A stretch of 64,000 bases of DNA from Phycisphaerales bacterium. GTDB lineage: Bacteria; Planctomycetota; Phycisphaerae; Phycisphaerales; UBA1924. Of the stretch, positions 10,674 to 34,509 are shown piece after piece. The position numbers and the translations under genes were made by a program. How positions within the stretch are numbered: the stretch's first letter is position 1; each line of letters starts with the position of its first letter. Location: assembly GCA_029260435.1 (NCBI GenBank), contig JAJDDG010000019.1, positions 1 to 64,000 of the forward strand. Reading direction: 5' to 3'. The notes beneath the pieces are model-generated. The model did not search any database. It was not told the origin of the DNA and saw nothing but the letters and a program-made list of their open reading frames with translations.

Positions 10674-10682
10674 ACAACAACA

Positions 10683-13293: not shown

Positions 13294-13327
13294 ACACCTC
13301 TTCCCCAATCAACACCCTTCCACCCAA

Positions 13328-15325: not shown

Positions 15326-15486
15326 CTCAGCATCATCCTTATCAATCCGTGTTCGGACAACCAAAGCCCCACCACCCGCCGATTGTTCCTCAATCGCTCA
15401 ATCCTCTGTTCTCGAACCCAGTCTCAAGCCGTTCGCGGACCTTGTTCGATACACCTGATACAAATCAATCGCCCCGGAGACTCCCT

Positions 15487-16500: not shown

Positions 16501-16507
16501 GCATCCC

Positions 16508-16867
16508 TCACTCCCCCGCCTCGATCACCGCCACCCCCTCTTCCATACCCTCCCGAGTGGTAAACCGCCCCGCAAGACCGAGCATCCGCATAAACGCCAG
16601 AAGCTCACCGCTCAGCCCACAAATCACCATCACCCCGCCGACCTCCCGGGCAGCCTCCTGTGCTTCCAGCAGCGCGGTGATCCCGATCGAACTGATCATC
16701 TCCGTGCCGCTCATATCCAACACGAGCCCCACCCCATCCACCGCCGGCATCCGCCTCCCGACCACCTCGCCCACACCCTGGGCCGTCTCGTGATTCAACT
16801 CCCGCGGCACAACCACAACCAGCACCTGCCCACCCCCCCCTTGAACGCTCCACCCGATCTCATCCAT
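16508..16867 (-). CDS. STAS-domain anti-anti-sigma factor-like protein
   Basis: 119 residues, convergent with fliM and separated by 7 bases. It is a single STAS domain with LVLDMSGTEMISSIGITALLE. The Ser pair in MISSIG is where RsbV/SpoIIAA-type proteins are phosphorylated, and the downstream FMRMLGLAGRF block is typical. It would bind an anti-sigma kinase when unphosphorylated. The SpoIIE-type phosphatase at 11430..13067 is a plausible partner that removes the phosphate. No RsbW-like kinase or sigma factor is next to it. Lying beside fliM, it could also act in motility control; this is inference. Confidence 0.85.
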   Translation of the reverse strand: MDEIGWSVQGGGGQVLVVVVPRELNHETAQGVGEVVGRRMPAVDGVGLVLDMSGTEMISSIGITALLEAQEAAREVGGVMVICGLSGELLAFMRMLGLAGRFTTREGMEEGVAVIEAGE

Positions 16868-16897
16868 CTGATCATCTCCGTGTGCCCCGCCCCGAAC

Positions 16898-16926
16898 TTG
16901 ACCCGACCGAACCCACGAGGATACCC
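16898..16926 (+). promoter_or_regulatory. candidate promoter of the nusA leader
   Basis: TTGACC is followed after 17 bases by ATACCC, giving a start near 16933. The -35 is five of six, the -10 weak. It would place a leader of about 330 bases before the nusA ATG. Confidence 0.3.
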
Positions 16927-16929
16927 TCT

Positions 16930-17187
16930 ACGCGTCTACCGAACTCGTACCAGGCCGCCGAGCGGCCGGAGCATGATGTCGATGCGTACGGTCTTCAACA
17001 ATGCTGGCTGAGCTACGTCCATCCTTGGACTTGGCCCACAGCGCTGCACACAGGGAGCGCGTCATGACCTGACGCCCCTCCCCATCTTGCAGCCGGCACG
17101 CCATCACCCCCGCGCAAGCGAGGTGATACGCGCCCCAGCACGGAGACCACGCGCGTCCAACGAACGCTCGTGGTTGCTTCTTTTTTT
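16930..17187 (+). ncRNA. candidate structured leader or small RNA upstream of nusA
   Basis: The 397-base gap before nusA has no credible gene but a series of hairpins on the plus strand. They are GGCCG/CGGCC at 16953-16967, GTCCA/TGGAC at 17017-17030 and GCGCT/AGCGC at 17041-17060, with the palindrome GTCATGAC at 17061-17068. An intrinsic terminator follows (17146-17187). ACGCGC at 17128-17133 is exactly complementary to GCGCGT at 17151-17156 inside the terminator stem, so it could act as an antiterminator. Two readings fit: an attenuator controlling the nusA operon, or a separate small RNA of about 250 bases. It does not show the SRP RNA or tmRNA core motifs. Confidence 0.45.
17146..17187 (+). 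terminator. intrinsic terminator in the nusA leader
   Basis: ACCACGCGCGT (17146-17156) pairs with ACGCTCGTGGT (17164-17174) with one mismatch across a seven-base CCAACGA loop. It is followed by TGCTTC and seven T. It stops 77 bases before the nusA ATG and has no coding gene upstream on the same strand, so it terminates either a leader transcript or a small RNA. Confidence 0.8.
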
Positions 17188-17264
17188 GCCCCCAGCCCAA
17201 ACGGGCAGACGGAAATCCCGACATCCAGACAACCAAACATCCAAACAAGACGGACAACACAACA

Positions 17265-18683
17265 ATGAACACCCAGGAAATGATCCGAGTCCTCGATTCA
17301 ATCGCGCGCGACCGCGATATCGATCGCGATCTGCTCATCGGAGACCTCGAACAGGCGATGATCTCCGCCGCACGCAAGCACTACCAGTCACTCGACACCG
17401 AGGAATTCACCTGCTCCATCGACCGCCTCTCGGGCGACATGGACATGCGCCGCCACGGCGAACCGCTCGAAATCAACCCCCAGGACCTCGGCCGCATCGC
17501 CGCGCAGACATTCAAGCAGGTCATGATCCAGCGCTTCCGCGAAGACGAACGCGACTCCCTGTACGACCGATTCTCCAAACGAGTCGGCGACATCGTCACG
17601 GGCGTCGCCCAGCGCTACGAAGGCGGCGCACTCGTCGCAACAATCGAACGCGCCGAAGGCTTCATGCCCCGCTCCGAACAGATCCCCGGCGAGCAGTTCC
17701 ACCCCCAGGACCGCGTCCGTTGCCTCCTGCTCGACTGCCGCGATGCAGGCAACCAAATCAAAATCGTCCTCTCCCGCGCCCACCCCGACTTCATCAAACG
17801 CCTCTTCGAGGTCGAAGTCCCCGAGGTCGCCGAGCGCGTCATCGAGATCAAGGCAATGGCCCGTGAAGCGGGCTACCGCACAAAGCTCGCAGTCTCATCC
17901 ATCGACTCCAAAGTCGATGCCGTCGGAGCATGCGTCGGCGTCCGAGGATCCCGCATCCGAAACATCGTGGACGAACTCAACGGTGAAAAAATCGACATCG
18001 TTCGCTGGAACGAGTCCTCCCAGATCCTCATCCAGAACGCCCTCAAACCCGCCGAAATCGCAGAGGTCTCCCTCTGCTTCGAACTCGGTCGGGCAACCGT
18101 CGTTGTGGACGAAACCCAGCTCTCCCTCGCCATCGGCAAACGCGGCCAAAACGTCCGCCTCGCCGCGCGACTAACCGGCTGGGATATCGACATCATCACC
18201 CCAGACGAGTTCAACAAGAACCTCGAGATCATGGCAGAGACACTCCGCGAGATCGACGGCGTCGAGGAAACCCAACTCGACCGCCTCCCGGCTCTCGGCA
18301 TGATCTCCGTGTTCGATATCGAAGAGGTCGGCCCCGAAGTCCTCCAAAACGAACTCGAGGTCACCCCCGAGGTCGCCGCCGCGCTCGTAAAAGCCGCCGC
18401 CGAAAAGTCAAAGATCGTCGCCGAGCAGCAGGCCAAGGACAAGGCGGAAGCGGAACAAAAACGCAAGGAAGAGGAAGAAGCAGCCCGCCAACTCCTCGCC
18501 GAAGGTGGCGATGCCTCCTCCGTCTCTCCCGATGTCGCCGCCGCCGCAATCCTCTCAGCAGCGGACCACACCCCCGCGAACCCAATCGAAGCACCCGTCG
18601 CCAAATCCGACGACGCACGTGCTGCATCAATCCTTTCTGGCGACGACGCCCCCGCAGAATCACCCACAGAAAACAACAGCTAA
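17265..18683 (+). CDS. nusA: transcription termination/antitermination factor NusA
   Basis: 472 residues. The N-terminal RNA-polymerase-binding domain (IARDRDIDRDLLIGDLEQAMISAA) is followed by an S1 domain near 130-200 (GDIVTGVAQRYEGGALVATI) and two KH domains (VGACVGVRGSRIRNIVDEL, then LAIGKRGQNVRLAARLTGW). A helix-hairpin-helix region (PALGMISVFDIEEVGPEVL) precedes an Ala/Glu-rich tail. It binds RNA polymerase and affects pausing, termination and ribosome coupling. It heads the nusA-infB-rbfA operon. No rimP gene precedes it, unlike many bacteria; the leader with its own terminator is there instead, which raises the possibility of NusA feedback on its own leader. Confidence 0.97.
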   Translation: MNTQEMIRVLDSIARDRDIDRDLLIGDLEQAMISAARKHYQSLDTEEFTCSIDRLSGDMDMRRHGEPLEINPQDLGRIAAQTFKQVMIQRFREDERDSLYDRFSKRVGDIVTGVAQRYEGGALVATIERAEGFMPRSEQIPGEQFHPQDRVRCLLLDCRDAGNQIKIVLSRAHPDFIKRLFEVEVPEVAERVIEIKAMAREAGYRTKLAVSSIDSKVDAVGACVGVRGSRIRNIVDELNGEKIDIVRWNESSQILIQNALKPAEIAEVSLCFELGRATVVVDETQLSLAIGKRGQNVRLAARLTGWDIDIITPDEFNKNLEIMAETLREIDGVEETQLDRLPALGMISVFDIEEVGPEVLQNELEVTPEVAAALVKAAAEKSKIVAEQQAKDKAEAEQKRKEEEEAARQLLAEGGDASSVSPDVAAAAILSAADHTPANPIEAPVAKSDDARAASILSGDDAPAESPTENNS

Positions 18684-18737
18684 CTACGCCACACTCCAAA
18701 CAACAAACGACCCCAACCTTCCGACCCGGAGAATCAA

Positions 18738-21431
18738 TTGTCCAAACGTGTCTTCGAAATCGCTCGCGAGCTGGATGTCAAGTCCAAAGCACTCATCGAA
18801 AAGTGTAAGGCCGAAGGTGTCCCCGGCATCACCAACCACATGTCCTCCGTCAGCGCGGGCCTCGAAGCCACGCTGCACTCGTGGTTCTCCGCCGCAGACG
18901 CCGAGGTCGGCGTTGCCGTCGAAACCGCCGAGAAGGTCGATCTCACCAAGGTCCGCGCCAAGCCCCGCAAGAAAACCGCGCGCAAAGCCGCTGCACCAAA
19001 TGCTGCCACCACCGCGACCATCGAAGCACCCCCCGAATCCGTCGAAACCGAAGCGCCACCCGCCGCGCCCGCGCCGACACCCGAACAACCGGCCCCCGTC
19101 GAACCGCCCGCCAAGGTCGCCGAAGCTCCCGCCGCTCCAACAGCAACAATGAAGGTCGGACCCGGACAGCCCGCCCCGATGAACGTCCCCACCCGACCAA
19201 CCGAGGTCAAACCCGTCGGCCCCAAACTCGACGTCCAAAAACCCGCCAAGCTCTCAGGCCCCAAGGTCATCCGTGTCGAAGCGCCGGACGTTATTGAAAA
19301 CCGCAGACGCCGCGAACCCTCAGGCCCATCCATGCCCATGTCCCGCGGCCCGCGCGGCGGCGGCGGCGTCAACATGCCCGATGCCCCCCCAAGCGACTCC
19401 GCGGATCGGCGCAACAAACGCCGCACCCCAGGCGGCACCGGCGCAGGACCCGGTGCACGTGACAAGGGCGCCAAACGCTCCGCTCGAGGCGGAGGCGCAG
19501 GCGCAGGCAGCGGCAAAACCTGGCGCCAGCAGGACCTCATCGAACGCGAAGCTCGTCTCAACCGCTCCGGTGGCTTCCTCTCACAGCGCCGACGCGACCA
19601 GAAAATCAAGTCCCGTTCTCCACACGAACGCGCCGCGACCGCCGCACAAACCGGCGGCACAGTCAAAATTGCTTCCCCCTTCTCAATCAAAGACCTCTCC
19701 GCAGCAACCGGCGTCCGTTCCGCAGAGATTGTCAAAAAGCTCTTCCTGGAAGGCACCCCCGCAACACCCACCGCAATACTCGACGACGAGAAAGCTATGG
19801 AAATCATGCTCGAGTACAACATCGAGCTCGAGATCGAAACCGAAGCGACCGCCGAAGAAATTGTCGTACAGGAATTCGAACAACGCGAAACCATTAACGA
19901 GCAACCACGCTTCCCCGTTGTCACCATCCTCGGCCACGTCGACCACGGCAAAACATCACTCCTCGACAAAATCCGCAAGGCAGACGTCGCCTCGGGCGAA
20001 GCCGGCGGCATCACTCAGGCAACAAGCGCCTTCCTTGTCCCCGTCTCCGTCGCCGAAGGCGACCGCAAGGTCTGCTTCCTCGACACCCCGGGCCACGAAG
20101 CATTCACCGAGATGCGCTCCCGCGGCGCAAATATGACAGACATCGTCGTGCTCGTCGTCGCCGCGGACGACGGCGTCATGCCCCAGACCGTCGAATCAAT
20201 CGCCCACGCCCAGGCAGCAGGCGTTCCCGTCGTCGTCGCTCTCAACAAAACCGACCTCCCCAACGCGACAGACGAAAACGTTCAGAAAATCCTCGGCCAA
20301 CTCGCCGAAAAAGGGCTCAACCCCACCGAGTGGGGCGGCGAAACCGAAGTCATCCGCACATCCGCCCAAACCGGCGCAGGCATCGATGACCTCCTCGAAA
20401 CACTCGACCTCCAGGCACAACTCCTCGAACTCACCGCAGACTTCTCCGGCAACGCCTCAGGCATGGTCATCGAATCTCGCCTCGAAGAAGGCCGCGGCGC
20501 AGTCGCAAACATCCTCATCCAGCAGGGCGAAATCAAGGTCGGCGACAACATCGCCGTCGGCCGCGCATTCGGCCGTGTCCGCGACATCACCGACGACCGC
20601 GGCAACAAAATCAAAGTCGCAACACCCTCCACGCCTATCCAGATCTCCGGCATCAACGAAATCCCCGACGCCGGCGACAAGTTCTACATCGTCAAAAACC
20701 TCAAAAAGGCGCAGGAGGCAGCCGAGCACCGCTACCAGGAAGAGCGTGAACGCAAACTGGTGCAGCCCAAAGCCACGCTGGACGCCATGTTCGCCCAGAT
20801 GAGCGAAGCAAAGGTCAAGGAACTCCTCGTCGTGCTCAAGGCAGACGTCCAAGGCTCCGTCGATGTCATCAAAAACGCTGTCGAAGATATCGCAACAGAC
20901 GAAGTCAAGATCCGCGTGCTCCACGCAGCGGTCGGCGGCGTCTCCGATTCAGACGTCACACTCGCCGCCGCTTCCGGAGCCATCATCCTCGGCTTCAACG
21001 TCATCCCCTCCTCCAAGGCCCGCAGAAACGCCGACGCAAAGGGCGTCGAAGTCCGCGCATACCGCGTCATCTACGACATCGTCGATGACATCAAAATGGC
21101 CGCCGAAGGCCTCCTCGAACCCGAAGTCCGCGAAGAAATCCTCGGCCACGCCGAGGTCCGCAAGGTCTTCAAGGTCTCCAAGATCGGCGCCATCGCCGGG
21201 TGCTACGTCACCGACGGCTCCATCGAACGCAACGCGCTCATCCGTGTCACACGAGACGACATCGTCATCGAACACGACCGCGTCCTCGAGCAACTCAAAC
21301 GATTCAAGGACGACGCAAAGGATGTCAAATCGGGCCAGGAATGCGGCATGAAAATCGTGGGCTACGACGACATCAAAGAAGGCGACATCCTCGAGTGCTA
21401 CCGCAAAACCGAGGTCAAACGCACCCTCTAA
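18738..21431 (+). CDS. infB: translation initiation factor IF-2
   Basis: 897 residues, read from a TTG start with CCGGAGAA about 8 bases before it; no ATG lies nearby in frame. An N-terminal IF2_N-type helix ([21 protein letters not shown]) is followed by a long low-complexity Ala/Pro/Lys linker to about residue 300 and a second small N-domain ([17 protein letters not shown]). The GTPase domain has GHVDHGKT near 398, DTPGHEAF and NKTD, and then domains II-IV ending in the fMet-tRNA-binding region ([15 protein letters not shown]). It loads initiator tRNA on the 30S subunit. It lies 54 bases after nusA and 12 before a DUF503 gene. Confidence 0.97.
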
Positions 21432-21443
21432 CCCCACCGACTC

Positions 21444-21794
21444 ATGCACATCGGCATCCTACAATTCGAACTCCTTGTCCACGACGCAACGTCCCTCAAA
21501 GACAAACGCCGCGTGGTCAAATCCGTCAAGGACAAACTCCACCGCGAGCACCTCGTCTCCGTCGCAGAAGTCGCTGCGCTCGACCACCACAGCCTCGCCG
21601 TCATGGGCCTCGCCATCGTCTCCAACTCAACCTCCTACATCACACAAACCCTCGACCGCATCGCCGCCAAACTCAAATCGCTCACAACCGCAGAACTCGG
21701 CTCCATCCAACGCGACATCATCTCGGGAACAGCGATCAACGACTCCTCACCCACCGCCGAGCCCCTCTGGACCTCCGATGAGGCGCGACTATGA
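21444..21794 (+). CDS. DUF503 (YlxP-like) protein
   Basis: 116 residues. It begins MHIGILQFELLVHDATSLKDKRRVVKSV, which is characteristic of DUF503 proteins, small proteins found between infB and rbfA in many bacteria. Further matching pieces are EVAALDHHSLAVMGLAIVSNS. Function is not settled; the genomic position suggests ribosome biogenesis. It starts 12 bases after infB and overlaps rbfA by ATGA, so it is firmly in the operon. The last 30 residues are not conserved in my recollection of the family. Confidence 0.88.
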   Translation: MHIGILQFELLVHDATSLKDKRRVVKSVKDKLHREHLVSVAEVAALDHHSLAVMGLAIVSNSTSYITQTLDRIAAKLKSLTTAELGSIQRDIISGTAINDSSPTAEPLWTSDEARL

Positions 21795-22204
21795 ATCACC
21801 GCACAGAACAACTCTCCTCCGTCATCCACCGCGCAGTCCAGTCCGTCATCGACGGAGGCCTCGCCGACCCACGCCTACAGGTCATGATCACGATCACCAG
21901 GGTCGAGGTCGCCCAGGACCGCCGCACCGCGACCATATTCATCTCGGTGCTGCCCGAAAAAGGCGAAAAACTCGCCATGCACGGCATCCGCGACGCCGCA
22001 AGGCACATCCGCCGCGCCGCCGCCGACAAAACCAAGATCCACCGCATGCCCCTGTTCAACTTCAAGGTAGACAAGGGCATGAAGAACCAAGCAGCCATCT
22101 ACCAGGCTCTCGCCGAAGTCAACGCCGAACGCGAGCAACGAGCCAACCAGGCCTCTAACGAATCAGACGATGCGCCGCCCGGCGCAACGGAGAACGACAC
22201 TTGA
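21791..22204 (+). CDS. rbfA: ribosome-binding factor A
   Basis: 137 residues starting in an ATGA overlap. RbfA features include RTEQLSSVIHRAVQSVI, ADPRLQVMITITRVEVAQDRRTATIFISVL, and the C-terminal KTKIHRMPLFNFKVDKGM. It is a cold-shock factor for 30S maturation that acts on 16S rRNA 5' processing. An acidic tail (SNESDDAPPGATEND) ends the protein. Its stop overlaps the TTG of the next gene (TTGA). No truB follows, the usual neighbour in many genomes. Confidence 0.93.
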   Translation: MNHRTEQLSSVIHRAVQSVIDGGLADPRLQVMITITRVEVAQDRRTATIFISVLPEKGEKLAMHGIRDAARHIRRAAADKTKIHRMPLFNFKVDKGMKNQAAIYQALAEVNAEREQRANQASNESDDAPPGATENDT

Positions 22205-22914
22205 GCCCCACACCAAACGCCAAATCCCTCGACGCACTGCTCAACGCGCTCAAGGCAGCCCACAAGCCCGAACCCGTCGAGCCCCACACACCGATCGAGG
22301 TCTTCATCCTCTCCTACCTCCTCTGGGACGGCATCACCAACCGCGCCGAACTCGCGCTCAAGCGCATCCAGTCTCATTGCATCGACTTCAACGAGTTCCG
22401 CGTCTGCGATATCCCCGAGGTCATATCACTCATCGGCAAGACCTACCCCCGCGCCGAGGAACGAGCCCACCGCCTCCTGCTCGGGCTCAACGATATCTAC
22501 CGCCGCGAACACGAAGTCTCTATCGAGAGTTGTATGAAGATGACTAAACGCGAGGCACGCAAATACCTCGAGTCCATCACCTCTATCCCCCCCTATGTCG
22601 CCGCCCGCATCGCCCTCGTCGCCGCAGACGCCCACGCCATGCCCGTCGATGACCGCACGCTTGAAAAGCTCGTCGAATACGGGGTCGTCCCCGCCGACAC
22701 CACCTGCGAGGTCGCGTCCTCCTTTATCGAACGCCACGTCAAAGCCGCCAACGCGCTCAACACACACGCCATGCTCCAGGCATGGTCCGAGGGCGACGTC
22801 AAAATAGCCGCGCCCAAGAAACCCCGCGCCGCCGCACCATCCAAACGACCGGCCAAGAAGAAGACAACAAAAAAGAAAACCACGAAGAAGACGACCAAGA
22901 AAAAAGCCCGCTAA
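22201..22914 (+). CDS. HhH-GPD-like (endonuclease III-related) protein with Lys-rich tail
   Basis: 237 residues from a TTG that overlaps the rbfA stop. The core resembles DNA glycosylases of the endonuclease III fold: ITSIPPYVAARIALVA stands where the helix-hairpin-helix is, and D150 in VDDRT matches the catalytic Asp region. The Lys found at the end of that hairpin in bifunctional enzymes appears to be Ala, and the C-terminal iron-sulfur cysteines are absent. Residues 205-237 are almost only Lys, Ala and Thr, resembling histone-H1-like or non-specific nucleic-acid tails. It is either a monofunctional glycosylase or a nucleic-acid binder. Being coupled to rbfA, a role with rRNA is possible but unsupported otherwise. 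Confidence 0.7.
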   Translation: MSPTPNAKSLDALLNALKAAHKPEPVEPHTPIEVFILSYLLWDGITNRAELALKRIQSHCIDFNEFRVCDIPEVISLIGKTYPRAEERAHRLLLGLNDIYRREHEVSIESCMKMTKREARKYLESITSIPPYVAARIALVAADAHAMPVDDRTLEKLVEYGVVPADTTCEVASSFIERHVKAANALNTHAMLQAWSEGDVKIAAPKKPRAAAPSKRPAKKKTTKKKTTKKTTKKKAR

Positions 22915-22952
22915 TACCCTCCCCCCAAACGACACATGAGCGCGCAACAGAC

Positions 22953-25900
22953 GTGAGCACGAACCGACGCCAACCCACCGCCGCACTCCCCCTCGCCGTG
23001 CTCACAATCCTGCTCGCCGCCTGCTCGTCCACACCCGACCGAACCGCGAGCACCACCCCAACCCAACAACACAAACTCTTCAGCGCGCAGATCAAACACC
23101 AGCTGCGCAGGCCCGATACCCGCGCCATCCAGGCGCCCCCGCCCCCAGCCTTCCCGCATCATCTCACAACAACCCTCCCCGACCAGGACAACGAGCACGC
23201 CGCCCGCACCCTGGCGAGCATCCTCACCGAGATCGACGCGCCAACCCCGCCCGCCGCATCAAGTGACCAATCCCTTCCCGATCTGGAAGGTGACGCACTC
23301 GCAGCCCTGCACGCCTACGTCCAGGGCCGCACCCTCCTGCTCACCGACGGCGCCGTCGCCGCAGAACCGCATCTCCGCGCCGCCGCCCGCCTCGACCCCG
23401 ATGCACCCGAACCATGGCACGCGCTCGCAGACGCCCAGACCGAACTCGCCTCCGCCGCGAACGCCACTGCTTCCTATAAACGCGTCCTCGATCGTGACCC
23501 CGCGAACATCGCCGCCCTCGAAAGACTCTCCAACGACGCACTCGACCGCCACGACTACAACAAATCCCTCATCTACCTCGCCCGCCTGCACACCCAGAAC
23601 CTCGCCGCGATCGACCCCGCGCTGCCCAACATCATCGATATGCGACTGGGACACACCCTCCTCGCACTCGGGCACACCGCCGCCGCCGCCGAGGCCTTCA
23701 TCAACGCCGCAACCCTCCCCGACCAGTTCAACGAACCGACCGACTACATCGAAGAACTCTCCCGCCTCTACCGCCAGCGCCCACTGCTCCTGCTCCGCGC
23801 AGGAGACGCCAACCTGCGCCTCGCCCGCTTCAATGATGCCGCAGCCGCCTATGCCCTCGCCGACTCGGTTCCCTCATCCGATGATCTCCACCAGATCCTC
23901 ACCCGCCGCATCTATGCGCTCATGAAGGGTGGGCACTCCGCATCCGCCGCCGGGGTGCTAATCACCACTCTGGACACGCAACAAGGGCTCGTTGACGCTG
24001 CACTTCTCGACCTTTTCCGACACGTCGCGCACCATTCCAAAGCCCAGCCACTCCTCGCGAGCGCACTGCGCGAGCGACTCGGCGCCGCGATAGCCGCCGA
24101 CAACCCGGTTCGGGGCGCACACCTCGCTCTGGCGCGCGCCGAGTGCCTCCTTCCGGACAGCGCACCCGCTGCACTTCGCCACACGCTGAGCACCTACCCC
24201 GCCCACACCGCTGCACTCCGTGCGCTGCTTGCCGCCTCACCATCCGACGCCGAGCGCACAACCGAGACGCTCGCCCTCATCGATGCGCACCCCGAGCACA
24301 CTTCCATCTATGTGGACGCACTGCTGGGCGCACAACCCGCGTCCCTCTTCCTCGATTTCCTCCCCGCTGACCCGCTCTCACCCGCCCCCGCCCTCCTCCG
24401 AGCCCACCTCCTGCTGGACGCCGCAGCCCCGACACCCGCCCTCGATGCGCTCACCCCCATCACCCCCGCGCACGGACCCATCCACTCCCATGCGGTTGTC
24501 CTGCGTGCATCCGTCCTCCGCATGCTCGCACGCAACGACGCGATCCCCGCGCTGCGCACCACCCTCCCCCCCGAGGCCCACCTCGCCCGTGCGCAGATCT
24601 ACCTGCTCCTCGGGCAAACCACACGCGCCTCCGACGCGCTCACCGAGCACCTGCCCTCTTCCGTCCAGCACCTGACCACCGGGGGATACACCGCGCAGGT
24701 GCGCGGCGATGTCGAAACCGCGCGCACGCTCTACGAACGTGCGATCGCCCTCGCCACCATGGACGACACCCCCTACCGGCGCCTGCTCGCCCTCCTCCGC
24801 CCCGGCGGTGCAGCCGCCGACCCACAAGGTTTCGCCGACACATACCGCGAGCTGCGCGCACACATCCCGTGGAGCGCCGCCGTTCCGTTCGAACACGCTC
24901 TCTCCGACGTGCGGAGCGGGCATCGTTCCCGCGCCGAACAGGCGCTCAGCAAATTGCTTATCGACCACCCGCGCGAGCACAGCGCCGCGAACCTGCTGAG
25001 CGAGCTGATGTACCAGCGCGCCGAATACGGTGCGCTCGATACCATGCTCCGCGAACGCCTCGAACAGGTTCCCATCCAAACTGCGGTGCTCACGCGGCTC
25101 GCGCAAGTCCTTTCAGCCACGGGGGATCACGAGGGGGCCGCGGAACTGCTCGCCCAGCGCCTCGAATCGATCCCGGGCGACGCCGATGCATCTCGTGTGC
25201 TCGAGCGGCTGCTGCGTGACAAGCTCGGCAGGCGAAAAGAGGCGGATGATCTTGCCTTTGCAAGGTTGGCGCGCCAAGCACAATCAGCGGAAAGCCTGCT
25301 GGAGTTGTTCGAGTTGTATCTCGAGCATGACCGCGAGCAGGATGCCTATGCCTCGCTCACGAAATACTTCTCGCTGGATGAAACGCGCGGTGCGCCGTTC
25401 CCTGCCCGCCTGATCCCCGTGCTTGCGCGGGTGACGATGCAGCGGGATAGGCAACAGGAAAACACACTGGACGGGGCGGTTTCGCTGTTGGACCTTGTGC
25501 TGACGCATCGCCCGGGTGCGCCCGAGAGCGTGCATCTGCTGCGGCTCGATGCGTTGATCTCACTGACAGCACCCGCGGATAGGTTGGTGCGTGCATTGGA
25601 AACATTAACGGGGCAGTATCCGGCTCATTACCCGAAGATCTACGACCTAGTAACGCGGAACCTGCTTGACAAGGCGGTGACTGCGTGGCAAGCGGGGGAT
25701 TGGGAAGCGCGCAGTTCGAATGCCGATCTGTCGCTTGAGCTGAACGTCCGACTGCTTGAGAAACTGGATGCCCCCCGTATCGAGACGATAGGGTATATCG
25801 CCGCGAGTGCGCATAATCTCGCGCACGATCCAAAGGATCGCGAACGGGCCGCGGACCATATCGCGGCGATGCTCCGGCTTGCTGATCTAGAGCCTGATTT

Positions 25901-26708
25901 TGATCGCGATGCGCTTGCTGGCGCGTACGGGCTCATATTTAATCCCAAGCCGGGCGATCGGTTGATTGCTCAGGTGTTTTCCTGGTTCGGAGATGCGCTC
26001 AACTCGACATCGCACGACAATCTAAGCGAGTCGATGTACCGCTCGGCGATTCGCCATGATCCGCAACATGTCATGAGCCTCAACAATCTGGGGTACAGGC
26101 TCGTTGAGCGCGGCGAAGACCTGGAGGAAGCGCACCGCCTGCTGGCACGATCGCATGTGCATGTCTTTGAGAATGACGATTATCCCGTTGAAGCCGTCAT
26201 CGATTCACTCGGGTGGGTGCGGTACAAATTGGGGATGATCGAGGACGGCGCCGACGACAACGGGCGGCGTATCCCGGGGGCGCTCACGCTGCTTGAGAAC
26301 GCGCTGATGCTCGCGAAGAAAGCAGCGAGAGCAGCAGCCGCTCTACCGAACAATGCAGATGCCGGCGTCTCGAGTGAAGAAATGACAATCGCGATTGTTT
26401 CCTCCCATTACGGCGACGCGCTTTGGAGTGGAGGGCACACGGAGCACGCCATCAAGGTCTGGCGCGAAGCGTATGAGAAGGCATCATCGATGCTTTCTGG
26501 CGCGGACGAGAGCGAACTCAACGCGGAGACTCTCCGGGAATTGGAACTGACCCGCTCGTCGTGCGGCGAGAAGATGCGTGCGGCGAGCGAGGACCGTGAG
26601 CCGGCGGTGGAGATGATCGTGCATGCGCTGCGCCCGGCGGAGCAGCCGGCGGATATCAATGCGGAGGCGATCGGGGCGGATGAAGCACAGGACAAGGACG
26701 CCTTTTAA
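22953..26708 (+). CDS. giant TPR-repeat lipoprotein
   Basis: 1251 residues from the GTG at 22953; the frame is open further 5', but only as shadow of the preceding gene. The signal ends in a lipobox, LLAAC, so it should be lipid-anchored. TPR-like helices start near residue 125 (AEPHLRAAARLDPDAPEPWHALADAQ) and recur throughout. The end has a classic TPR passage, SLNNLGYRLVERGEDLEEAHRLL and DSLGWVRYKLG. It is likely a scaffold facing the periplasm; no enzyme domain was seen. Codon use changes within the gene: C-ending codons dominate up to about codon 720, then G- and T-ending codons (TTG, CTG, GCG, GAT) take over. Most members of this class are shorter. Confidence 0.85.
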   Translation: MSTNRRQPTAALPLAVLTILLAACSSTPDRTASTTPTQQHKLFSAQIKHQLRRPDTRAIQAPPPPAFPHHLTTTLPDQDNEHAARTLASILTEIDAPTPPAASSDQSLPDLEGDALAALHAYVQGRTLLLTDGAVAAEPHLRAAARLDPDAPEPWHALADAQTELASAANATASYKRVLDRDPANIAALERLSNDALDRHDYNKSLIYLARLHTQNLAAIDPALPNIIDMRLGHTLLALGHTAAAAEAFINAATLPDQFNEPTDYIEELSRLYRQRPLLLLRAGDANLRLARFNDAAAAYALADSVPSSDDLHQILTRRIYALMKGGHSASAAGVLITTLDTQQGLVDAALLDLFRHVAHHSKAQPLLASALRERLGAAIAADNPVRGAHLALARAECLLPDSAPAALRHTLSTYPAHTAALRALLAASPSDAERTTETLALIDAHPEHTSIYVDALLGAQPASLFLDFLPADPLSPAPALLRAHLLLDAAAPTPALDALTPITPAHGPIHSHAVVLRASVLRMLARNDAIPALRTTLPPEAHLARAQIYLLLGQTTRASDALTEHLPSSVQHLTTGGYTAQVRGDVETARTLYERAIALATMDDTPYRRLLALLRPGGAAADPQGFADTYRELRAHIPWSAAVPFEHALSDVRSGHRSRAEQALSKLLIDHPREHSAANLLSELMYQRAEYGALDTMLRERLEQVPIQTAVLTRLAQVLSATGDHEGAAELLAQRLESIPGDADASRVLERLLRDKLGRRKEADDLAFARLARQAQSAESLLELFELYLEHDREQDAYASLTKYFSLDETRGAPFPARLIPVLARVTMQRDRQQENTLDGAVSLLDLVLTHRPGAPESVHLLRLDALISLTAPADRLVRALETLTGQYPAHYPKIYDLVTRNLLDKAVTAWQAGDWEARSSNADLSLELNVRLLEKLDAPRIETIGYIAASAHNLAHDPKDRERAADHIAAMLRLADLEPDFDRDALAGAYGLIFNPKPGDRLIAQVFSWFGDALNSTSHDNLSESMYRSAIRHDPQHVMSLNNLGYRLVERGEDLEEAHRLLARSHVHVFENDDYPVEAVIDSLGWVRYKLGMIEDGADDNGRRIPGALTLLENALMLAKKAARAAAALPNNADAGVSSEEMTIAIVSSHYGDALWSGGHTEHAIKVWREAYEKASSMLSGADESELNAETLRELELTRSSCGEKMRAASEDREPAVEMIVHALRPAEQPADINAEAIGADEAQDKDAF

Positions 26709-26734
26709 CGGCGCAGAGGAAGCAGGAGCGAGAG

Positions 26735-27484
26735 ATGGCTGGTCATAGCAAGTGGGCGAATATCAAGCACAAGAAGGCGCGCACGGACGCGAAACGCGGC
26801 AAGGCGTGGAGCAAGTGCTCGAAGGCGATCATGGTCGCGGCGAAGGAGGGTGGCGGCGATGTGAGCGCCAACCTTTCTCTGCGGTACGCGGTTGAAGAAG
26901 CCAAGGGCGTGAACATGCCCAAAGACACGATCGAGCGGGCGATCAAGAAAGGCGCCGGCGAAACGGGCGGCGCGGATTACGTTTCGGTGCGGTACGAGGG
27001 GTACGGGCCGGCGGGCGTGGCGGTGATCGTTGACACGCTCACGGACAACCGCAACCGCACGGCGCCGGAGATGCGGACGCTGTTTACCAAGTCCGGCGGG
27101 AACCTCGGCGCGACGGGTTGCGTGGGGTATATGTTCGAGCCCAAGGGGATCTTGCTCGTTGAGGAGGACAAGACGAGCGAGGAGCAGATCATGGAACTCG
27201 CGATCGAGGCGGGCGCGGAGGATGTCGAGCTCGAAGATGGGATCTGGACGGTGACGACCGAGGTGAACGAGTTCATCGCGGTGAAAGAAGCGATCGACGG
27301 CGCGGGGATCGAGACGACGAGCGCCGAACGCACGATGATCCCGAACATGAGCGTGGAAGCCAAGGGTGCAGACGTCGGGAAGGTGATCCGCCTGATCGAC
27401 AACCTCGAAGATCACGACGATGTGCAAAAGGTGTACACGAACCTGGATGCTTCGGCGGAGGATCTTGCTGCGGCAACCGAATAG
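26735..27484 (+). CDS. YebC/PmpR-family protein
   Basis: 249 residues, the usual family length. It starts MAGHSKWANIKHKKARTDAKR, then RYAVEEAKGVNMPKDTIERAI and YEGYGPAGVAVIVD. The C-terminal EVELDDG-like block is VELEDGIWTV. An AGGAGCGAGAG lies before the ATG. The family contains regulators binding near target genes, and newer work links some members to relief of ribosome stalling at proline runs. It follows the lipoprotein by 26 bases. Confidence 0.96.
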   Translation: MAGHSKWANIKHKKARTDAKRGKAWSKCSKAIMVAAKEGGGDVSANLSLRYAVEEAKGVNMPKDTIERAIKKGAGETGGADYVSVRYEGYGPAGVAVIVDTLTDNRNRTAPEMRTLFTKSGGNLGATGCVGYMFEPKGILLVEEDKTSEEQIMELAIEAGAEDVELEDGIWTVTTEVNEFIAVKEAIDGAGIETTSAERTMIPNMSVEAKGADVGKVIRLIDNLEDHDDVQKVYTNLDASAEDLAAATE

Positions 27485-27528
27485 CTCCCCCACCCCGTTC
27501 CGCTCAGGTTGCTCGCCGGCACCTCGCG

Positions 27529-29322
27529 TTACTTGATCCAGAAGACCTTGGGTGCGGCGAGGAGGATCGGATCGCGCTGGAGTTGGAGCGATGTTGTCAC
27601 GCCCTGGCGGACGGCGTTCCACCCGTTCTCTCCGATAGCGGCGCGGATGAGCTCGACTGTCTCGCTCACGAGCGGCGATCGGACCGACGCACTCGCCCCG
27701 AGTATCTGGTTGAGCATCTCTTCGAGTGTGGGCCGGGGTGGGTACTGGAGGATGTCGTAGCGCCCTTCGACGAGGCTGAGCTCGCTCGCGAGATCGGTGA
27801 TTGCGTCTTCGATGCCGCCGATTTCGTCGGCCATGTTGAGCGTGATCGCACGGCGCCCTTCGAAGAGGCGCCCCTCGGCGGTCCTGGAGATATCGATGCC
27901 CTTGCGCCCTTGCGAGACGCGTTTGGTGAAGAGGTCGTACACCTCGGTCATGCGCGCGCGGATGGTGTCGCGTTGTTCGGGTGTCCAAGATTGTGTCATG
28001 GAGAACATGTCGCCGCCCTTGCCGCGAGAGCGGGAGACGACGTTCAGGTGGATTTTGTCGAAGAGGCCCTTCATGGAGAGCTTGCCGGAGATGACACCGA
28101 TGGAGCCGACGATGGAGGAGGGGTTGACGTACACCTTGTCGCCGGCGACGGCGATGTAGTAGCCGCCGGACGCGGCCATGGAGCCGACGGAGACCCAGAC
28201 GGGTTTGTGCTCGGCGACGCGGCGCAGCCCGAGCCAGATGGATTCGCTCGCGATGGCGCTGCCGCCGGGCGAATCGATGCGGACGACGACACCCTTGATG
28301 CGGTTGTCGGACTCGATGTCGAGCAGGGCTTTGCGGATGGTAGTGGAGCCCACGGAACTGGAGGACATGAGCCCGCCGGATGATGATTCGCCGTCCACGA
28401 TTGCGCCATCGATATACACCACGGCGATGGAGTCGCGGACCGGACCGAGGACGGGCGGGGCGAAGGCTTCCATCATCGATGCGAACGCCTCGAAGAAGCT
28501 CATCTGGGAGTAGTCCACTTCGTTCTCGGCTTTGGAGGGCGAGAGGTCGTTGTCCCAGACAAAATCATCGCCGTACTCGTCTTCGAGGTAGGACTCGAGA
28601 TCCGGGCGGTCGAGTTCGCGGTCGATGAGCTTGAGGCGCATGGCGGTGTCGGCGTTTGCGATGAAGCTCTCGCTCATGGCGTATTCGAGTTCGGCGCGGG
28701 AGAGGTTGCGTCCTTCGGCGAGGGTGTTGGCGTATTCCTCGTAGAGCCCGTCGAGGAGGGCGGAGAAGTTTGCGTCCCACTCGGGGGAGGGCCCGGAGTT
28801 GGCGATGGTTTCCATCGCGCCCTTGAAATCGCCGATCTGGACGAACTCGGCGTGGATGCCGACGGCGTGCAGGGCGTCGGCGAGGTACATCTCTTCGGTG
28901 TGGAAGCCAGCGAGCATGGCGCCGCCGCCGGACTGGATGATGACGTCATCGGCGTGCGCCGCGATGAGGAATGACGCGGGTGTGTAGATCTCGGTGAAGA
29001 CGTGGACGGTGCGGTCCTGCTCGCGGACGCGCTCGATCGCGACACCGATCTCTTCGATCTGGGTGCGGGACGCGGCGAAATCCGAGATGCGGATGACGAG
29101 GGCGTCGATGTTTTCGCTCGGATCGGCGGCGAGGGCGAGTTCGCCCATGATGTCCGCGAGGGTCTTGTCCTTCTCGATGGAGGCGAAGGGGATGATCGGG
29201 GTGGTGTCGCGCTCGATGACGGGGCCGTCGAGCTTGATGTAGGCGATGGTGGAAGCTGCGGACGCGGCGGTGGTGATCGCGGCGGAGAGCCCGAGCGTTG
29301 CGGCGAGGCGGGGGATGGTCAT
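27529..29322 (-). CDS. sppA: SppA-type signal peptide peptidase, long (67K) form
   Basis: 597 residues. The N-terminal signal MTIPRLAATLGLSAAITTAASA is followed by two S49 domains. The expected Lys of the catalytic dyad is K167 in IGDFKGAMET of the first domain. The Ser is S385 in SMAASGGYYIA of the second, preceded by RIDSPGGSAIASE. It degrades released signal peptides in the membrane or periplasm. A second, shorter SppA lipoprotein lies at 43624..44640, so the window holds both architectures. It is convergent with yebC. Confidence 0.93.
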   Translation of the reverse strand: MTIPRLAATLGLSAAITTAASAASTIAYIKLDGPVIERDTTPIIPFASIEKDKTLADIMGELALAADPSENIDALVIRISDFAASRTQIEEIGVAIERVREQDRTVHVFTEIYTPASFLIAAHADDVIIQSGGGAMLAGFHTEEMYLADALHAVGIHAEFVQIGDFKGAMETIANSGPSPEWDANFSALLDGLYEEYANTLAEGRNLSRAELEYAMSESFIANADTAMRLKLIDRELDRPDLESYLEDEYGDDFVWDNDLSPSKAENEVDYSQMSFFEAFASMMEAFAPPVLGPVRDSIAVVYIDGAIVDGESSSGGLMSSSSVGSTTIRKALLDIESDNRIKGVVVRIDSPGGSAIASESIWLGLRRVAEHKPVWVSVGSMAASGGYYIAVAGDKVYVNPSSIVGSIGVISGKLSMKGLFDKIHLNVVSRSRGKGGDMFSMTQSWTPEQRDTIRARMTEVYDLFTKRVSQGRKGIDISRTAEGRLFEGRRAITLNMADEIGGIEDAITDLASELSLVEGRYDILQYPPRPTLEEMLNQILGASASVRSPLVSETVELIRAAIGENGWNAVRQGVTTSLQLQRDPILLAAPKVFWIK

Positions 29323-29399
29323 GCGTGTTTCCCTCTGGTGGTCGATATGGATTGGTGTATCTGATTATTCGGCAGGACGTGGATCGGGTTTCGGATCGT

Positions 29400-29828
29400 T
29401 TAGTTGTAGCCCAACTCTTCGAGATCGTCCTCCTCGAGCCCAAAATGGTGCCCGATCTCGTGGAGGAGGGTAACAGCGATTTCTTCGAAAATGACATCCT
29501 CGGCGTCGGGGATGGTCCAACCACCCGCCTGCTCGATAATGCCGAGGCGGAACAGATGGATGTGCTCGGGGAGATCGGAGGCATCTTCGACGGATCGCTC
29601 GGTGAGCATTCTCCCTGTGTGCAGCCCGCAGAAATCGAGGCGAAAATCGGAGTCTGGGACGCTCTGATCAATCTGCCAGAGCTCGCGGAGATGAGCGAGC
29701 AGATCGGGCGACGGGGCGTCGTCCACGATGACGGGGACTTCACGCAATAGCACAGCAAGATCATCGGGCAGCGCTGCGATCACCTGCTCCATAAGATTGT
29801 CGAACCGGTCTCGCTCTTGATCCGTCAC
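29400..29828 (-). CDS. HExxH metallopeptidase-like protein (zincin family)
   Basis: 142 residues. The C-terminus has the zinc-protease motif HEIGHH at 123-128 in TLLHEIGHHFGLEEDDLEELGY, the pattern of the small PF06262 (Zincin_1) family. The N-terminal part (DRFDNLMEQVIAALPDDLAVLLREVPVIVDD) also fits that family. A substrate is not known. The third ligand is probably in EEDDLEEL. It lies 77 bases upstream of the SppA gene on the same strand, so the two may share a transcript. Confidence 0.85.
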   Translation of the reverse strand: MTDQERDRFDNLMEQVIAALPDDLAVLLREVPVIVDDAPSPDLLAHLRELWQIDQSVPDSDFRLDFCGLHTGRMLTERSVEDASDLPEHIHLFRLGIIEQAGGWTIPDAEDVIFEEIAVTLLHEIGHHFGLEEDDLEELGYN

Positions 29829-29924
29829 CCCCCTATCCTACCCCCCCGTCACCCCCCCCTCACCCCATTCACCCCCTGCCCATCAACCGGCTGGTAGGTC
29901 ATGGCAATCGATTCGAGGAAGATC

Positions 29925-30557
29925 ATGGACGACAACGACCGCATCGCACAATTTGAGAACATGGCTCAGGCGGACCCCTCGAACGAGATGGCGCATTTCT
30001 CGCTCGGCGGGGCGTACGCCAAAGCGGAGCGGCACGCGGAGGCAGCGGGTGCGTACGCGAAGTGCATCGAGGCCAACCCCGACATGAGCAAGGCGTACGA
30101 GCTTGGTAGCAAGGCGCTGGATTCGGCGGGTGAGAAGGACCAAGCGATCGAGCTGGCGACCAGGGGGTACGAGATCGCGGCGGGGCTCGGGGATCTGATG
30201 CCACGGAACGCGATGGGCGAGTTGCTTGAGCGCCTCGGGGCTCCGGTGCCCGAACTCGAAGGCGGAGCGGCGGATGCCGAAATGCCCGAGGGATCGTTTC
30301 TATGCCAGCAGTCGGGACGACCCGGCACGGAGATGGAGCACCCGCCCTTCAAGGGGACGGTCGGAGCGTGGATCCAGTCGAATATCTCGCAGGAGACTTG
30401 GGGGCAATGGCTCGCACAAGGCACGAAGGTGATCAACGAGCTGCGGCTCGATCTGTCGCGCGACGAGGACAGCGAGACCTACGACCGGTACATGCACGAG
30501 TATCTCGGGCTGGACGACGAAAAACTCGCAGAACTGCGCACTGCTGCGGCGTCATAA
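29925..30557 (+). CDS. TPR domain fused to a YggX-like Fe(II)-trafficking domain
   Basis: 210 residues from the ATG at 29925, preceded by GAGGA at 6-10 bases; an ATG at 29901 in frame lacks good spacing. Residues 1-90 are two to three TPR helices pairs (DPSNEMAHFSLGGAYAKAERHAEAAGAYAKCIEANPDMSKAYELG). Residues from about 120 match YggX: FLCQQSGRPGTEM, then QETWGQWLAQGTKVINELRLDL and YDRYMHEYL. YggX protects iron-sulfur clusters from oxidative damage and carries an N-terminal Cys, here in FLCQ. YggX is normally a 90-residue stand-alone protein, so the TPR fusion is notable and suggests tethering to a partner. Confidence 0.75.
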   Translation: MDDNDRIAQFENMAQADPSNEMAHFSLGGAYAKAERHAEAAGAYAKCIEANPDMSKAYELGSKALDSAGEKDQAIELATRGYEIAAGLGDLMPRNAMGELLERLGAPVPELEGGAADAEMPEGSFLCQQSGRPGTEMEHPPFKGTVGAWIQSNISQETWGQWLAQGTKVINELRLDLSRDEDSETYDRYMHEYLGLDDEKLAELRTAAAS

Positions 30558-30589
30558 AAAAACCGCATCGTGGAAAACAACGATGCGGT
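30556..30589 (-). terminator. intrinsic terminator of the sorting-tail gene
   Basis: On the minus strand ACCGCATCG and CGATGCGGT pair perfectly around TTGTTTTCCA. Seven T follow. It sits 30 bases after the stop of 30620..31381 and partly overlaps the stop codon of the plus-strand YggX gene; it is oriented to end the minus-strand transcript. Confidence 0.9.
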
Positions 30590-30619
30590 GTGACGGGAGC
30601 TTTGTGGCTGTCGCGGGTG

Positions 30620-31381
30620 CTAACGCCTGCGGCGGGTGGCAAGCAGGCTCATCGGCGCGAAGGCGGCGATGGTGGAGGGGGCGGGGATGGACAGGGTGAA
30701 TTGCCACTGGGCGCCGTAGGAGCCGAAGAAATCATTGGACAAGGCGTCTGCACCGGCTTCGGTGTGCCCGGAAGCGCCGATGGAGAAGGTGTAGGAGTTG
30801 CCGGGCGTGAGTTGGAACGACTCGGGCGCGATCGAGGCCTGGCTCCATGTCGCGGGGCTATCGGTGCTCGCGATGATGGTCGAACCGATATCGCCGCCGT
30901 TTACCTGGAGCAGCCATCTGAGGGAGAACTCGGTGTCGTCGCCGACTCCGTTTGCACGGAGCACCCAATCGAGTTCGAGCTTCGTTGGGGCATCGACTTC
31001 GAATACGTAGACAAAGTCCGAGATCGATTCGGCGGCGGAGCCCTCGGGGAAGAATGCGATCGCGTCACCCATGGCCGATCCCGATCCTGTGATGAAGTCG
31101 GGGGTCGTTTGGGTGATGCTCTGTCCCGCGTACGAAGACCCCGAGGAAAAGACGGTGCTTACCTCGGAATCGACCTGATCGAAGAAGAGGATATCCCCTG
31201 GATCGTCGAACGCGGAGAAGGGGCTGCTTGTCGCATCGACGGATGCGTCCGACTCGACAGTGTTCTCACCGCTTATGTTGATAAACGCGGCGTGCGTGGA
31301 AGTTGCGACGAAAAGCGCAGCAACTGTGGTGGTTAGAAAACCCCGGAAAGGGTTTGTGTCAATCATCATAAGTGCTTCCAT
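30620..31381 (-). CDS. exported protein with PAP-type C-terminal sorting signal
   Basis: 253 residues. The ATG at 31381 has GAGAGAGA about 9 bases upstream. A signal peptide near the start (FLTTTVAALFVATSTHA) precedes a beta-rich, Asp/Ser-rich body (NISGENTVESDASVDATSS, WVLRANGVGDDTEFSLRWLL) that looks like a beta-sandwich. The end has IPAPSTIAAFAPMSLLATRRRR: Pro-Ala-Pro, hydrophobic helix, Arg cluster, the PEP-CTERM type of sorting tail. It would be held in the membrane, cleaved by an exosortase-like enzyme (none in the window) and displayed or secreted. A terminator follows at 30556-30589. The next upstream gene encodes a similar protein. Confidence 0.8.
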   Translation of the reverse strand: MEALMMIDTNPFRGFLTTTVAALFVATSTHAAFINISGENTVESDASVDATSSPFSAFDDPGDILFFDQVDSEVSTVFSSGSSYAGQSITQTTPDFITGSGSAMGDAIAFFPEGSAAESISDFVYVFEVDAPTKLELDWVLRANGVGDDTEFSLRWLLQVNGGDIGSTIIASTDSPATWSQASIAPESFQLTPGNSYTFSIGASGHTEAGADALSNDFFGSYGAQWQFTLSIPAPSTIAAFAPMSLLATRRRR

Positions 31382-31508
31382 TTGAATCTCTCTCTCAACG
31401 CCCACGGGTTACGGATGTGCAGACGCCCAATCCTTTGGTGGGGCGGTTCACGATGAAACGGCGTATGGATCGGAGCGCCCCGCTCCGGTCCGCCGATGAC
31501 ACATTTCG

Positions 31509-32252
31509 TTAACGTCTCGTTCTTCTGGATGAGAAGCACAAGGCGATTGCGAACAAGGAAGATGCGGCGGGGGCCGGGACGACCGTGAGTGAAAACGCGA
31601 AGCCGGCTTCTGCCTTGATGTGATCCCGATCGAGCAGGTCCGTGTTTGCGACGGCGACGGCTTTAGCGGTGAGGCGGTACGAACCCGGCTCGAGTTCGCC
31701 GGAGAACGTGCCCTCGTCCGAACCATTGGTCCGGCGGAGGATGGCGCCCGAGATGGGCTTCTCCTTGGAGAGGCTTTCGAGCATGACCTCGGCGGCCTCG
31801 ACCTGGATGAGTTGGTCCAGCCCGATCCAGATCAACCAGTCGAACTCGATGATCAGCGGCTCGTCCGTCACCCTGAACGACATGGAGAAGGTGGTCACCG
31901 CGGCGGCGAAACCGAATTCCTCGTCCACGACCGTCGCTTCAGAGATCACGGTTGCGCGGGCTTCGATGAGCCCGGAGCCGTCGAAGCCGTTGGAGATCAG
32001 CATCGCGGCGCTGCTGGCGTCGGCGGCTTTGCTTGTGTTGGTTGTGAGCCCTATTTCGAACGCGGAGCGGTCGAACATGTCGAGTTCCCGCGATTCGATT
32101 GTCGCGGGAGCGTCGTTGAGGATGGCGGATGTACTCAACACGGTGCGCGAGCGATCGAAGGGGATGAACCCTGCGCTGGCGGTGTTGGCGAGCGTGAGCG
32201 CGCACAACGACACCGTGAAAACAGCACACCCTGACCACGCTGTGCGTGCCAT
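31509..32252 (-). CDS. second exported protein with PAP-type sorting tail
   Basis: 247 residues. The signal peptide is CAVFTVSLCALTLANTASA (about 9-27). The body is again beta-rich with acidic and Ser residues (LDMFDRSAFEIG, EFDWLIWIGLDQ, GELEPGSYRLTAKAV). It ends VVPAPAASSLFAIALCFSSRRTRR, the sorting tail. Sequence similarity to the neighbouring tail protein is limited to architecture (WLxRxNG-like, GSYxLTAxA versus GNSYTFSIGA), so they are probably related, diverged copies. Function unknown; display or secretion is inferred. An upstream stretch (32253-32570) holds the likely promoter. Confidence 0.78.
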   Translation of the reverse strand: MARTAWSGCAVFTVSLCALTLANTASAGFIPFDRSRTVLSTSAILNDAPATIESRELDMFDRSAFEIGLTTNTSKAADASSAAMLISNGFDGSGLIEARATVISEATVVDEEFGFAAAVTTFSMSFRVTDEPLIIEFDWLIWIGLDQLIQVEAAEVMLESLSKEKPISGAILRRTNGSDEGTFSGELEPGSYRLTAKAVAVANTDLLDRDHIKAEAGFAFSLTVVPAPAASSLFAIALCFSSRRTRR

Positions 32253-34496: not shown

Positions 34497-34509
34497 GCGA
34501 GCGGGGTGC

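What the first reader, a model, noticed from the sequence alone, without database searches (positions are those of the whole stretch)
25000..25300. GC-skew and codon-use reversal inside one intact reading frame
Plus-strand composition is C-rich before about 25.1 kb and G-rich after it, irrespective of gene direction. Sample 60-base lines: 20221 has G12/C24, 27181 has G26/C12, both in plus-strand genes. The switch falls near codon 720-740 of the 1251-residue TPR lipoprotein, where Leu CTC gives way to TTG/CTG and Ala GCC to GCG. Because the frame is uninterrupted, a recent inversion endpoint is not the simple answer. A replication-strand boundary, gene conversion, or fusion of two TPR proteins are options.
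Basis: partly seen in the sequence, partly recalled or inferred. Interest (0 to 1): 0.65.

Follow-up and report, generated by a model that had tools for sequence, protein, structure and literature searches.

The report
Many replication-origin-like skew switches in bacterium
The reversal seen inside one gene is one of at least eleven sharp strand-composition switches scattered through a Phycisphaerales-like bacterial genome, each followed by a gradual decline, the pattern left in eukaryotes by many replication start sites and not the single-origin pattern expected of bacteria.

Summary
Third-position GC and TA skew reverse at 25,079 (95% interval 24,894-25,124) inside an intact TPR gene, equally in plus and minus genes. 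Skew then declines linearly to zero near 48.5 kb and turns negative again, so this is no ordinary oriC/replichore boundary. In 1.26 Mb of the same 3.12-Mb draft genome (33 contigs) I found 11 sharp up-steps and no sharp down-steps at the same threshold. Nearly all declines fit a line better than a step, and all seven rises tested fit a step better than a line. This is the 'N-shaped' skew that marks multi-origin replication in eukaryotes. Simulated multi-origin replication reproduces it; single origin plus inversions does not. Gene order across the switch (nusA-infB-DUF503-rbfA-TPR-yebC) is conserved in nine related genera, which rejects inversion, fusion and misassembly. Up-steps lack DnaA boxes, AT-rich dips or a shared motif and are not at dnaA. 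The trait is patchy within the family. Best explanation: dozens of fixed, bidirectional replication start sites with stochastic termination between them (inferred; about 0.7). Known multi-origin cyanobacteria have irregular skew instead. No reads were available, so initiation itself is untested.

The parts
24894..25124 (.). Sharp upward step of GC and TA skew: predicted fixed bidirectional replication start site
   Evidence: ML change point 25,079 with 95% interval 24,894-25,124; step fits better than a line by 139 lnL units over 13-37 kb
1..25078 (.). Left arm: plus strand C/A-rich (lagging-type), fourfold GC skew reaching about -0.79 at 17.5-22.5 kb
   Evidence: fourfold-site profile, both gene directions
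25079..48500 (.). Right arm: plus strand G/T-rich (leading-type), skew falling about 0.21 per 10 kb to zero
   Evidence: linear beats step by 23 lnL units over 25.5-60 kb
46000..51000 (.). Gradual zero-crossing: predicted middle of a diffuse fork-convergence (termination) zone
   Evidence: fourfold GC skew +0.09 (45.0-47.5 kb), 0.00 (47.5-50 kb), -0.14 (50-52.5 kb)
51001..62000 (.). Plus strand C/A-rich again, predicted to be replicated mainly by forks from a start site beyond the contig end
   Evidence: fourfold GC skew -0.3 to -0.6
22782..26708 (+). TPR-repeat lipoprotein ORF (1308 aa from ATG; 1251 aa from a downstream GTG), uninterrupted across the step
   Evidence: translation, Pfam TPR hits, orthologues across the family
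17265..18683 (+). nusA, first gene of the conserved cluster that spans the step
   Evidence: PF08529/PF13184; colinear in relatives
18738..21431 (+). infB (IF-2)
   Evidence: PF11987
21444..21794 (+). DUF503 gene
   Evidence: PF04456
21791..22204 (+). rbfA
   Evidence: PF02033
26735..27484 (+). yebC/TACO1 gene, on the other side of the step and colinear in relatives
   Evidence: PF01709

Best explanation
This is one of dozens of fixed replication start sites on the chromosome of a Phycisphaerales-like planctomycete. Two forks leave about 25.1 kb, so the plus strand is lagging on the left (C/A-rich) and leading on the right (G/T-rich). Long-term replication-associated mutation has written that polarity into third positions. 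Neighbouring sites fire at variable times and not in every cycle, so forks meet at variable places and average fork polarity, hence skew, falls linearly between sites. SHOWN: the sawtooth shape, its genome-wide recurrence, independence from gene direction, conserved gene order across the step. INFERRED: that skew reports fork direction here, that up-steps are initiation sites, firing efficiencies of about 0.4-0.75, and roughly 27 sites extrapolated to 3.12 Mb. UNKNOWN: what marks the sites; they do not look like DnaA-oriC.
For: 11 up-steps of at least 0.4 and 0 down-steps in 1.256 Mb over 33 contigs. Linear beats step in 12 of 13 declines (best +242 lnL) and step beats linear in 7 of 7 rises. 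Both GC and TA skew switch and both gene strands agree. Simulated fixed stochastic origins give 21-26 up-steps and 0 down-steps; single origin plus 60 inversions gives equal numbers. Weaker steps sit beside stronger ones with the zero-crossing shifted towards the weak one (C5: steps at 4.7 and 47 kb, crossing near 12 kb). Sign check: the large ribosomal-protein cluster (C10 70-84.5 kb), the 16S gene (C20) and 14 of 18 tRNAs (p=0.03) lie on the G/T-rich strand, as expected if it is the leading strand. Up-steps also occur in relatives G011, G010, G014, G009 and in the single-contig G035. PMC3320577 ties N-shaped skew to fork polarity in human cells.
Against: No read depth, nascent-strand or Okazaki data. 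No shared k-mer, gapped motif, AT-rich dip, G4 excess or DnaA-box cluster at the steps. The two dnaA genes are not at steps. Related genera G021, G023, G002, G005 lack the pattern, so either origins or the mutational asymmetry come and go. Protein genes slightly prefer the C-rich strand where skew is strong (168 vs 113), the reverse of usual bacterial co-orientation, though my codon-based gene caller may be biased. G035 also has three down-steps at 0.35, one of them abrupt, at 2,846 kb.
Confidence: 0.7

Rival explanations
1. Mirror image: the up-steps are fixed fork-termination barriers and initiation is dispersed in between, in a lineage whose leading strand is C/A-rich.
For: Fixed terminators with dispersed initiation would give the same shape with opposite sign; initiation in multi-origin cyanobacteria appears dispersed (PMC7198777); protein genes slightly favour the C-rich strand.
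Against: Leading strands are generally G-rich in bacteria (stated in PMC3269012); ribosomal-protein cluster, 16S and most tRNAs lie on the G/T-rich strand; no motif shared at the steps.
Confidence: 0.08
2. Strand-asymmetric damage or repair spreading outwards from fixed points (break hot spots, recombination-dependent synthesis) in a chromosome still replicated from one origin.
For: Steps lack origin features, and the signal decays over tens of kb.
Against: Skews interact between neighbouring steps (zero-crossing shifts towards the weaker one), no overriding single-origin trend is visible across contigs, and third-position skew saturates near 0.6 genome-wide, which needs a dominant process.
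Confidence: 0.1
3. Single-origin chromosome scrambled by many inversions.
For: Multiple polarity changes can arise this way (cautions in PMC3269012 and PMC4403523).
Against: Would give equal numbers of sharp up- and down-steps (simulation); observed 11 vs 0. Gene order across the window step is conserved in nine other genera.
Confidence: 0.03
4. Transcription-associated skew from long divergent transcripts starting at each step.
For: Non-template strands can become G/T-rich (own knowledge; not tested here).
Against: + and - genes show identical skew; genes around steps are not divergently oriented; it would need uninterrupted transcripts of 20-50 kb through genes of both directions.
Confidence: 0.03
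5. Fusion of two TPR proteins, gene conversion or an assembly join at 25.1 kb.
For: Switch lies inside one long repeat-containing ORF.
Against: Orthologues of similar length with the same flanking genes; the skew extends over many unrelated genes on both sides; the same pattern recurs at 10 other loci.
Confidence: 0.01

Closest known systems
Skew N-domains of the human genome (replication N/U-domains; PMC3320577)
   Same: Abrupt upward skew jumps bordering segments in which skew falls linearly and changes sign near the middle; interpreted as fixed initiation zones with a gradient of fork polarity.
   Different: Human domains are megabase-sized; here about 50-100 kb in a dense bacterial genome, with steps resolved to a few hundred bases inside coding sequence.
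DnaA-independent multi-origin replication in cyanobacteria (Synechocystis 6803, Nostoc 7120, Cyanobacterium aponinum; PMC7198777)
   Same: Bacteria reported to replicate from multiple origins, in at least some cases without DnaA-oriC.
   Different: Those chromosomes have irregular GC skew and flat read depth (dispersed, asynchronous initiation); here skew is strong, regular and tied to discrete sites.
Multi-origin archaeal chromosomes (Haloferax, Haloarcula, Sulfolobus; PMC4595724, PMC3936714, PMC3269012)
   Same: Several fixed origins on one chromosome, visible as several skew minima.
   Different: Few origins, usually beside orc1/cdc6 initiator genes (own knowledge); here many sites, within unrelated housekeeping genes, in a bacterium with DnaA and DnaB.
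Ordinary bacterial DnaA-oriC skew boundary
   Same: Negative-to-positive GC skew switch on the plus strand.
   Different: Should occur once per chromosome with flat replichores; here at least 11 times with linear declines and no oriC hallmarks.

Membership tests
Classical single DnaA-oriC | one skew minimum per chromosome with flat replichore arms | tested here: not met
   11 up-steps in 1.256 Mb; declines are linear
Classical single DnaA-oriC | cluster of DnaA boxes at the switch | tested here: not met
   0-2 boxes with at most one mismatch within 1 kb of each step; 0 at the window step
Classical single DnaA-oriC | AT-rich unwinding region at the switch | tested here: not met
   GC within 150 bp of steps 0.59-0.72 against random mean 0.616; minimum GC slightly low but not distinctive (z -1.9)
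Classical single DnaA-oriC | dnaA (or other replication genes) next to the switch | tested here: not met
   no sharp upward switch within about 1.5 kb of either dnaA in G000 and five relatives; step genes are housekeeping genes; dnaN, gyrB and others not mapped
Skew N-domain (multi-origin) pattern | sharp upward jumps without matching sharp downward jumps | tested here: met
   11 vs 0 at threshold 0.4
Skew N-domain (multi-origin) pattern | linear decline between jumps | tested here: met
   linear beats step in 12 of 13 stretches
Skew N-domain (multi-origin) pattern | independent of gene direction | tested here: met
   fourfold GC skew -0.55/-0.55 and +0.40/+0.42 for +/- genes in the two main window arms
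Skew N-domain (multi-origin) pattern | jumps coincide with measured initiation or early replication | not testable with these tools
   no reads or nascent-DNA data
Cyanobacterial multi-origin replication | irregular GC skew without discrete switch sites | tested here: not met
   regular sawtooth
Cyanobacterial multi-origin replication | dnaA dispensable for replication | not testable with these tools
   two dnaA paralogues present here and generally in the class; dispensability needs a knockout
Archaeal or eukaryotic-type initiation machinery | MCM helicase | tested here: inconclusive
   only weak hits (at most 33 bits), present also in relatives without the sawtooth, and the family rings in all 14 control genomes including E. 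coli; a DnaB with an E-value of 1.7e-103 is present
Archaeal or eukaryotic-type initiation machinery | Orc1/Cdc6 initiator genes beside the origins | not tested
   no dedicated search; genes at ten steps examined have other functions

The most novel reading that the evidence does not exclude
A bacterial chromosome replicated from dozens of discrete, long-lived start sites that lack DnaA boxes, AT-rich unwinding elements and any shared sequence, lie inside ordinary genes and shift between genera: a eukaryote-like replication programme evolved within Bacteria with an initiation mechanism not yet described.
Probability: 0.5. Interest if true: 0.95.

Novelty: new variant of a known kind. Interest (0 to 1): 0.85.

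Why it matters
'One chromosome, one origin' is the working rule for bacteria; a 2015 review stated there was no evidence for two functional origins used on one bacterial chromosome (PMC4403523), with dispersed initiation in some cyanobacteria since reported as the exception (PMC7198777). A bacterium with dozens of fixed start sites would break that rule, give a small-genome model for fork-polarity gradients, and invalidate origin finders and growth-rate indices (PTR, iRep) for this group. It makes testable whether non-DnaA, non-motif origins exist in bacteria. I found no paper in the searchable open-access library describing this in Planctomycetota; preprints and most subscription journals were not searchable.

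Tried and rejected
Shared k-mers (6-10) and gapped 4+4 patterns at the steps: nothing beyond random region sets. DnaA boxes, AT-rich dips, G-quadruplexes, local folding: no clear signal. Two dnaA genes as the cause: found generally across the class, 101 of 101 genomes with DnaA and all but one with at least two hits. Missing uracil-DNA glycosylase or extra DnaB as the cause: no consistent difference between sawtooth and non-sawtooth genomes. MCM: only low-level hits, also in controls. Step position conserved relative to the TPR gene: no; the nearest step is about 6-7 kb away in G011, G010 and G035, and 20-40 kb away in G009 and G014. Relatives of the TPR protein in named genomes: none found. 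Coding-strand skew as the cause: strand coefficient only -0.07 against positional SD 0.32.

Full report
CHECK OF THE OBSERVATION. Raw GC skew on the plus strand is -0.12 to -0.35 from 1 to 25 kb and mostly +0.07 to +0.19 from 25 to 42 kb. Using third codon positions of called genes, the maximum-likelihood change point is 25,079 (95% interval 24,894-25,124; lnLR 314), inside the 1308-aa TPR ORF 22782-26708 (Pfam TPR hits). At fourfold degenerate sites the skew is identical in genes of both directions: -0.55/-0.55 left, +0.40/+0.42 right. Synonymous codon use within the gene flips as described. Intergenic sequence follows with weaker values.

After the switch the skew does not stay positive: it declines steadily, crosses zero near 48-50 kb and reaches -0.3 to -0.6 by 52-62 kb. 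A replichore boundary on a 3.12-Mb chromosome should not reverse again after 24 kb. The window is contig C19 (64,072 bp) of a 172-contig draft genome, 92% complete with 0.2% contamination. Its nearest named relatives by DnaA are Phycisphaerales MAGs, Planctomycetota.

GENOME-WIDE PATTERN. I took 1.256 Mb of this genome (33 contigs). Most longer contigs show the same sawtooth in both GC3 and TA3 skew; C142 (100 kb read) runs from 0 down to -0.6, jumps at 39.6 kb to +0.5, and falls gradually to -0.4 at 100 kb. Comparing 5-kb halves, 11 up-steps of at least 0.4 were found and no down-steps of that size (12 vs 0 at 0.35; 14 vs 6 at 0.3). A gene-based version corrected for coding strand gives 10 vs 1. 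A straight line fits 12 of 13 declining stretches better than a step (by 4 to 242 lnL units; the exception, C113, is a plateau then a fall), whereas all seven rises tested fit a step better than a line (by 13 to 175 units). Extrapolation gives about 27 up-steps for 3.12 Mb at that threshold; contig ends hide some.

NOT A REARRANGEMENT, FUSION OR MISASSEMBLY. nusA-infB-DUF503-rbfA-TPR-yebC lies across the step in the same order in G010, G009, G006, G008, G005 and G021 and in G035, G014 and G023, with and without the sawtooth; in G011 only rbfA-TPR-yebC was found. Orthologous open frames of comparable length matching both ends of the TPR protein exist across the family. A simulation of one origin plus 60 inversions gives equal numbers of sharp up- and down-steps; fixed stochastic origins give 21-26 up and 0 down.

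MECHANISM. In human cells, sharp upward skew jumps joined by linear declines (N-domains) are explained by fixed initiation zones and a gradient of fork polarity, skew being proportional to fork polarity (PMC3320577). A review contrasts this N-shape with the prokaryotic pattern (PMC3269016). Read the same way, up-steps here are bidirectional start sites, step height reflects firing efficiency (about 0.38-0.75 under the model), and zero-crossings are mean fork-meeting points. On contig C5 the weak site at 4.7 kb lies next to the strong site at 47 kb and the crossing is shifted towards the weak one, as expected. The sign agrees with the usual G-rich leading strand: the ribosomal-protein cluster on C10 (70-84.5 kb, all minus genes in a negative-skew region), the 16S gene on C20 and 14 of 18 tRNAs in clearly skewed regions (p=0.03) lie on the G/T-rich strand. 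Protein genes as a whole lean the other way (113 vs 168 where skew is strong), which I cannot explain and which may partly reflect my gene caller. The mirror-image model (fixed terminators, dispersed starts, C-rich leading strand) therefore keeps a small probability.

WHAT MARKS THE SITES. Nothing found: no shared k-mer or gapped motif, no DnaA-box cluster, no AT-rich dip, no G4 excess. All 11 steps have their best position inside a called gene (86% coding expected), and the genes examined are unrelated: TPR, aminotransferase, PilZ, DEAD helicase, mannosyltransferase-like, amine oxidase, UvrC, TatC, T2SS ATPase. Neither dnaA lies at an up-step. Two dnaA paralogues are general in the class, so they do not explain the trait.

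DISTRIBUTION. Up-steps of at least 0.4 are present in same-family genera G011, G010, G014 and G009, and on the single-contig 3.6-Mb G035 (2,855.9, 2,911.1 and 3,000.5 kb), but absent in the sampled parts of G021, G023, G002, G005, G006, G008 and of G056 from another family of the order. G035 is not clean: it has flat stretches and three down-steps, one of them abrupt. A two-gene DnaA tree (paralogues assigned by score, so rough) places sawtooth genomes in more than one place. Either start sites or the mutational asymmetry that makes them visible come and go.

COMPARISON WITH THE KNOWN. Multiple origins are established in archaea and eukaryotes. In bacteria, Synechocystis, Nostoc and some dnaA-less cyanobacteria are reported to replicate from multiple origins, with irregular skew and flat depth (PMC7198777). 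Skew-based suggestions exist for Wigglesworthia, Wolbachia and Mycoplasma pulmonis (PMC3269012), with warnings that rearrangement can mimic them (PMC4403523). The sawtooth with conserved gene order across a step goes beyond those cases. I therefore call it a new variant of multi-origin replication, not a proven one.

LIMITS.

Noticed in passing
window 61000-64000: GC content drops to about 0.57 next to a tRNA-Leu (63414-63501) near the contig end; may be the edge of a recently acquired island.
   Followed up: no
L061 (C82:17690-21178), L062 (C99:1-3190): Two dnaA paralogues on different contigs; at least two PF08299 hits in all but one of 101 class genomes searched.
   Followed up: partly
L050 (G035 C1, about 2,846,300): Abrupt down-step (+0.09 to -0.61) in the single-contig relative, unlike the gradual declines elsewhere; possibly a recent insertion or rearrangement.
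   Followed up: no
L170-L171 (G010 C122:11000-20500) against window 27529-34496: The block downstream of yebC is inverted in G010, the sister of this genome in the rough DnaA tree, and G010's own up-step (about 16.2 kb) lies inside it.
   Followed up: partly
33 contigs of G000: Protein-coding genes are slightly more often on the C/A-rich strand where skew is strong (168 vs 113), while tRNAs, 16S and the ribosomal-protein cluster are mostly on the G/T-rich strand.
   Followed up: partly
G056 and other non-sawtooth relatives: These show a mild coding-strand-linked GC3 skew (coefficient about -0.05 to -0.16) and little positional skew.
   Followed up: partly
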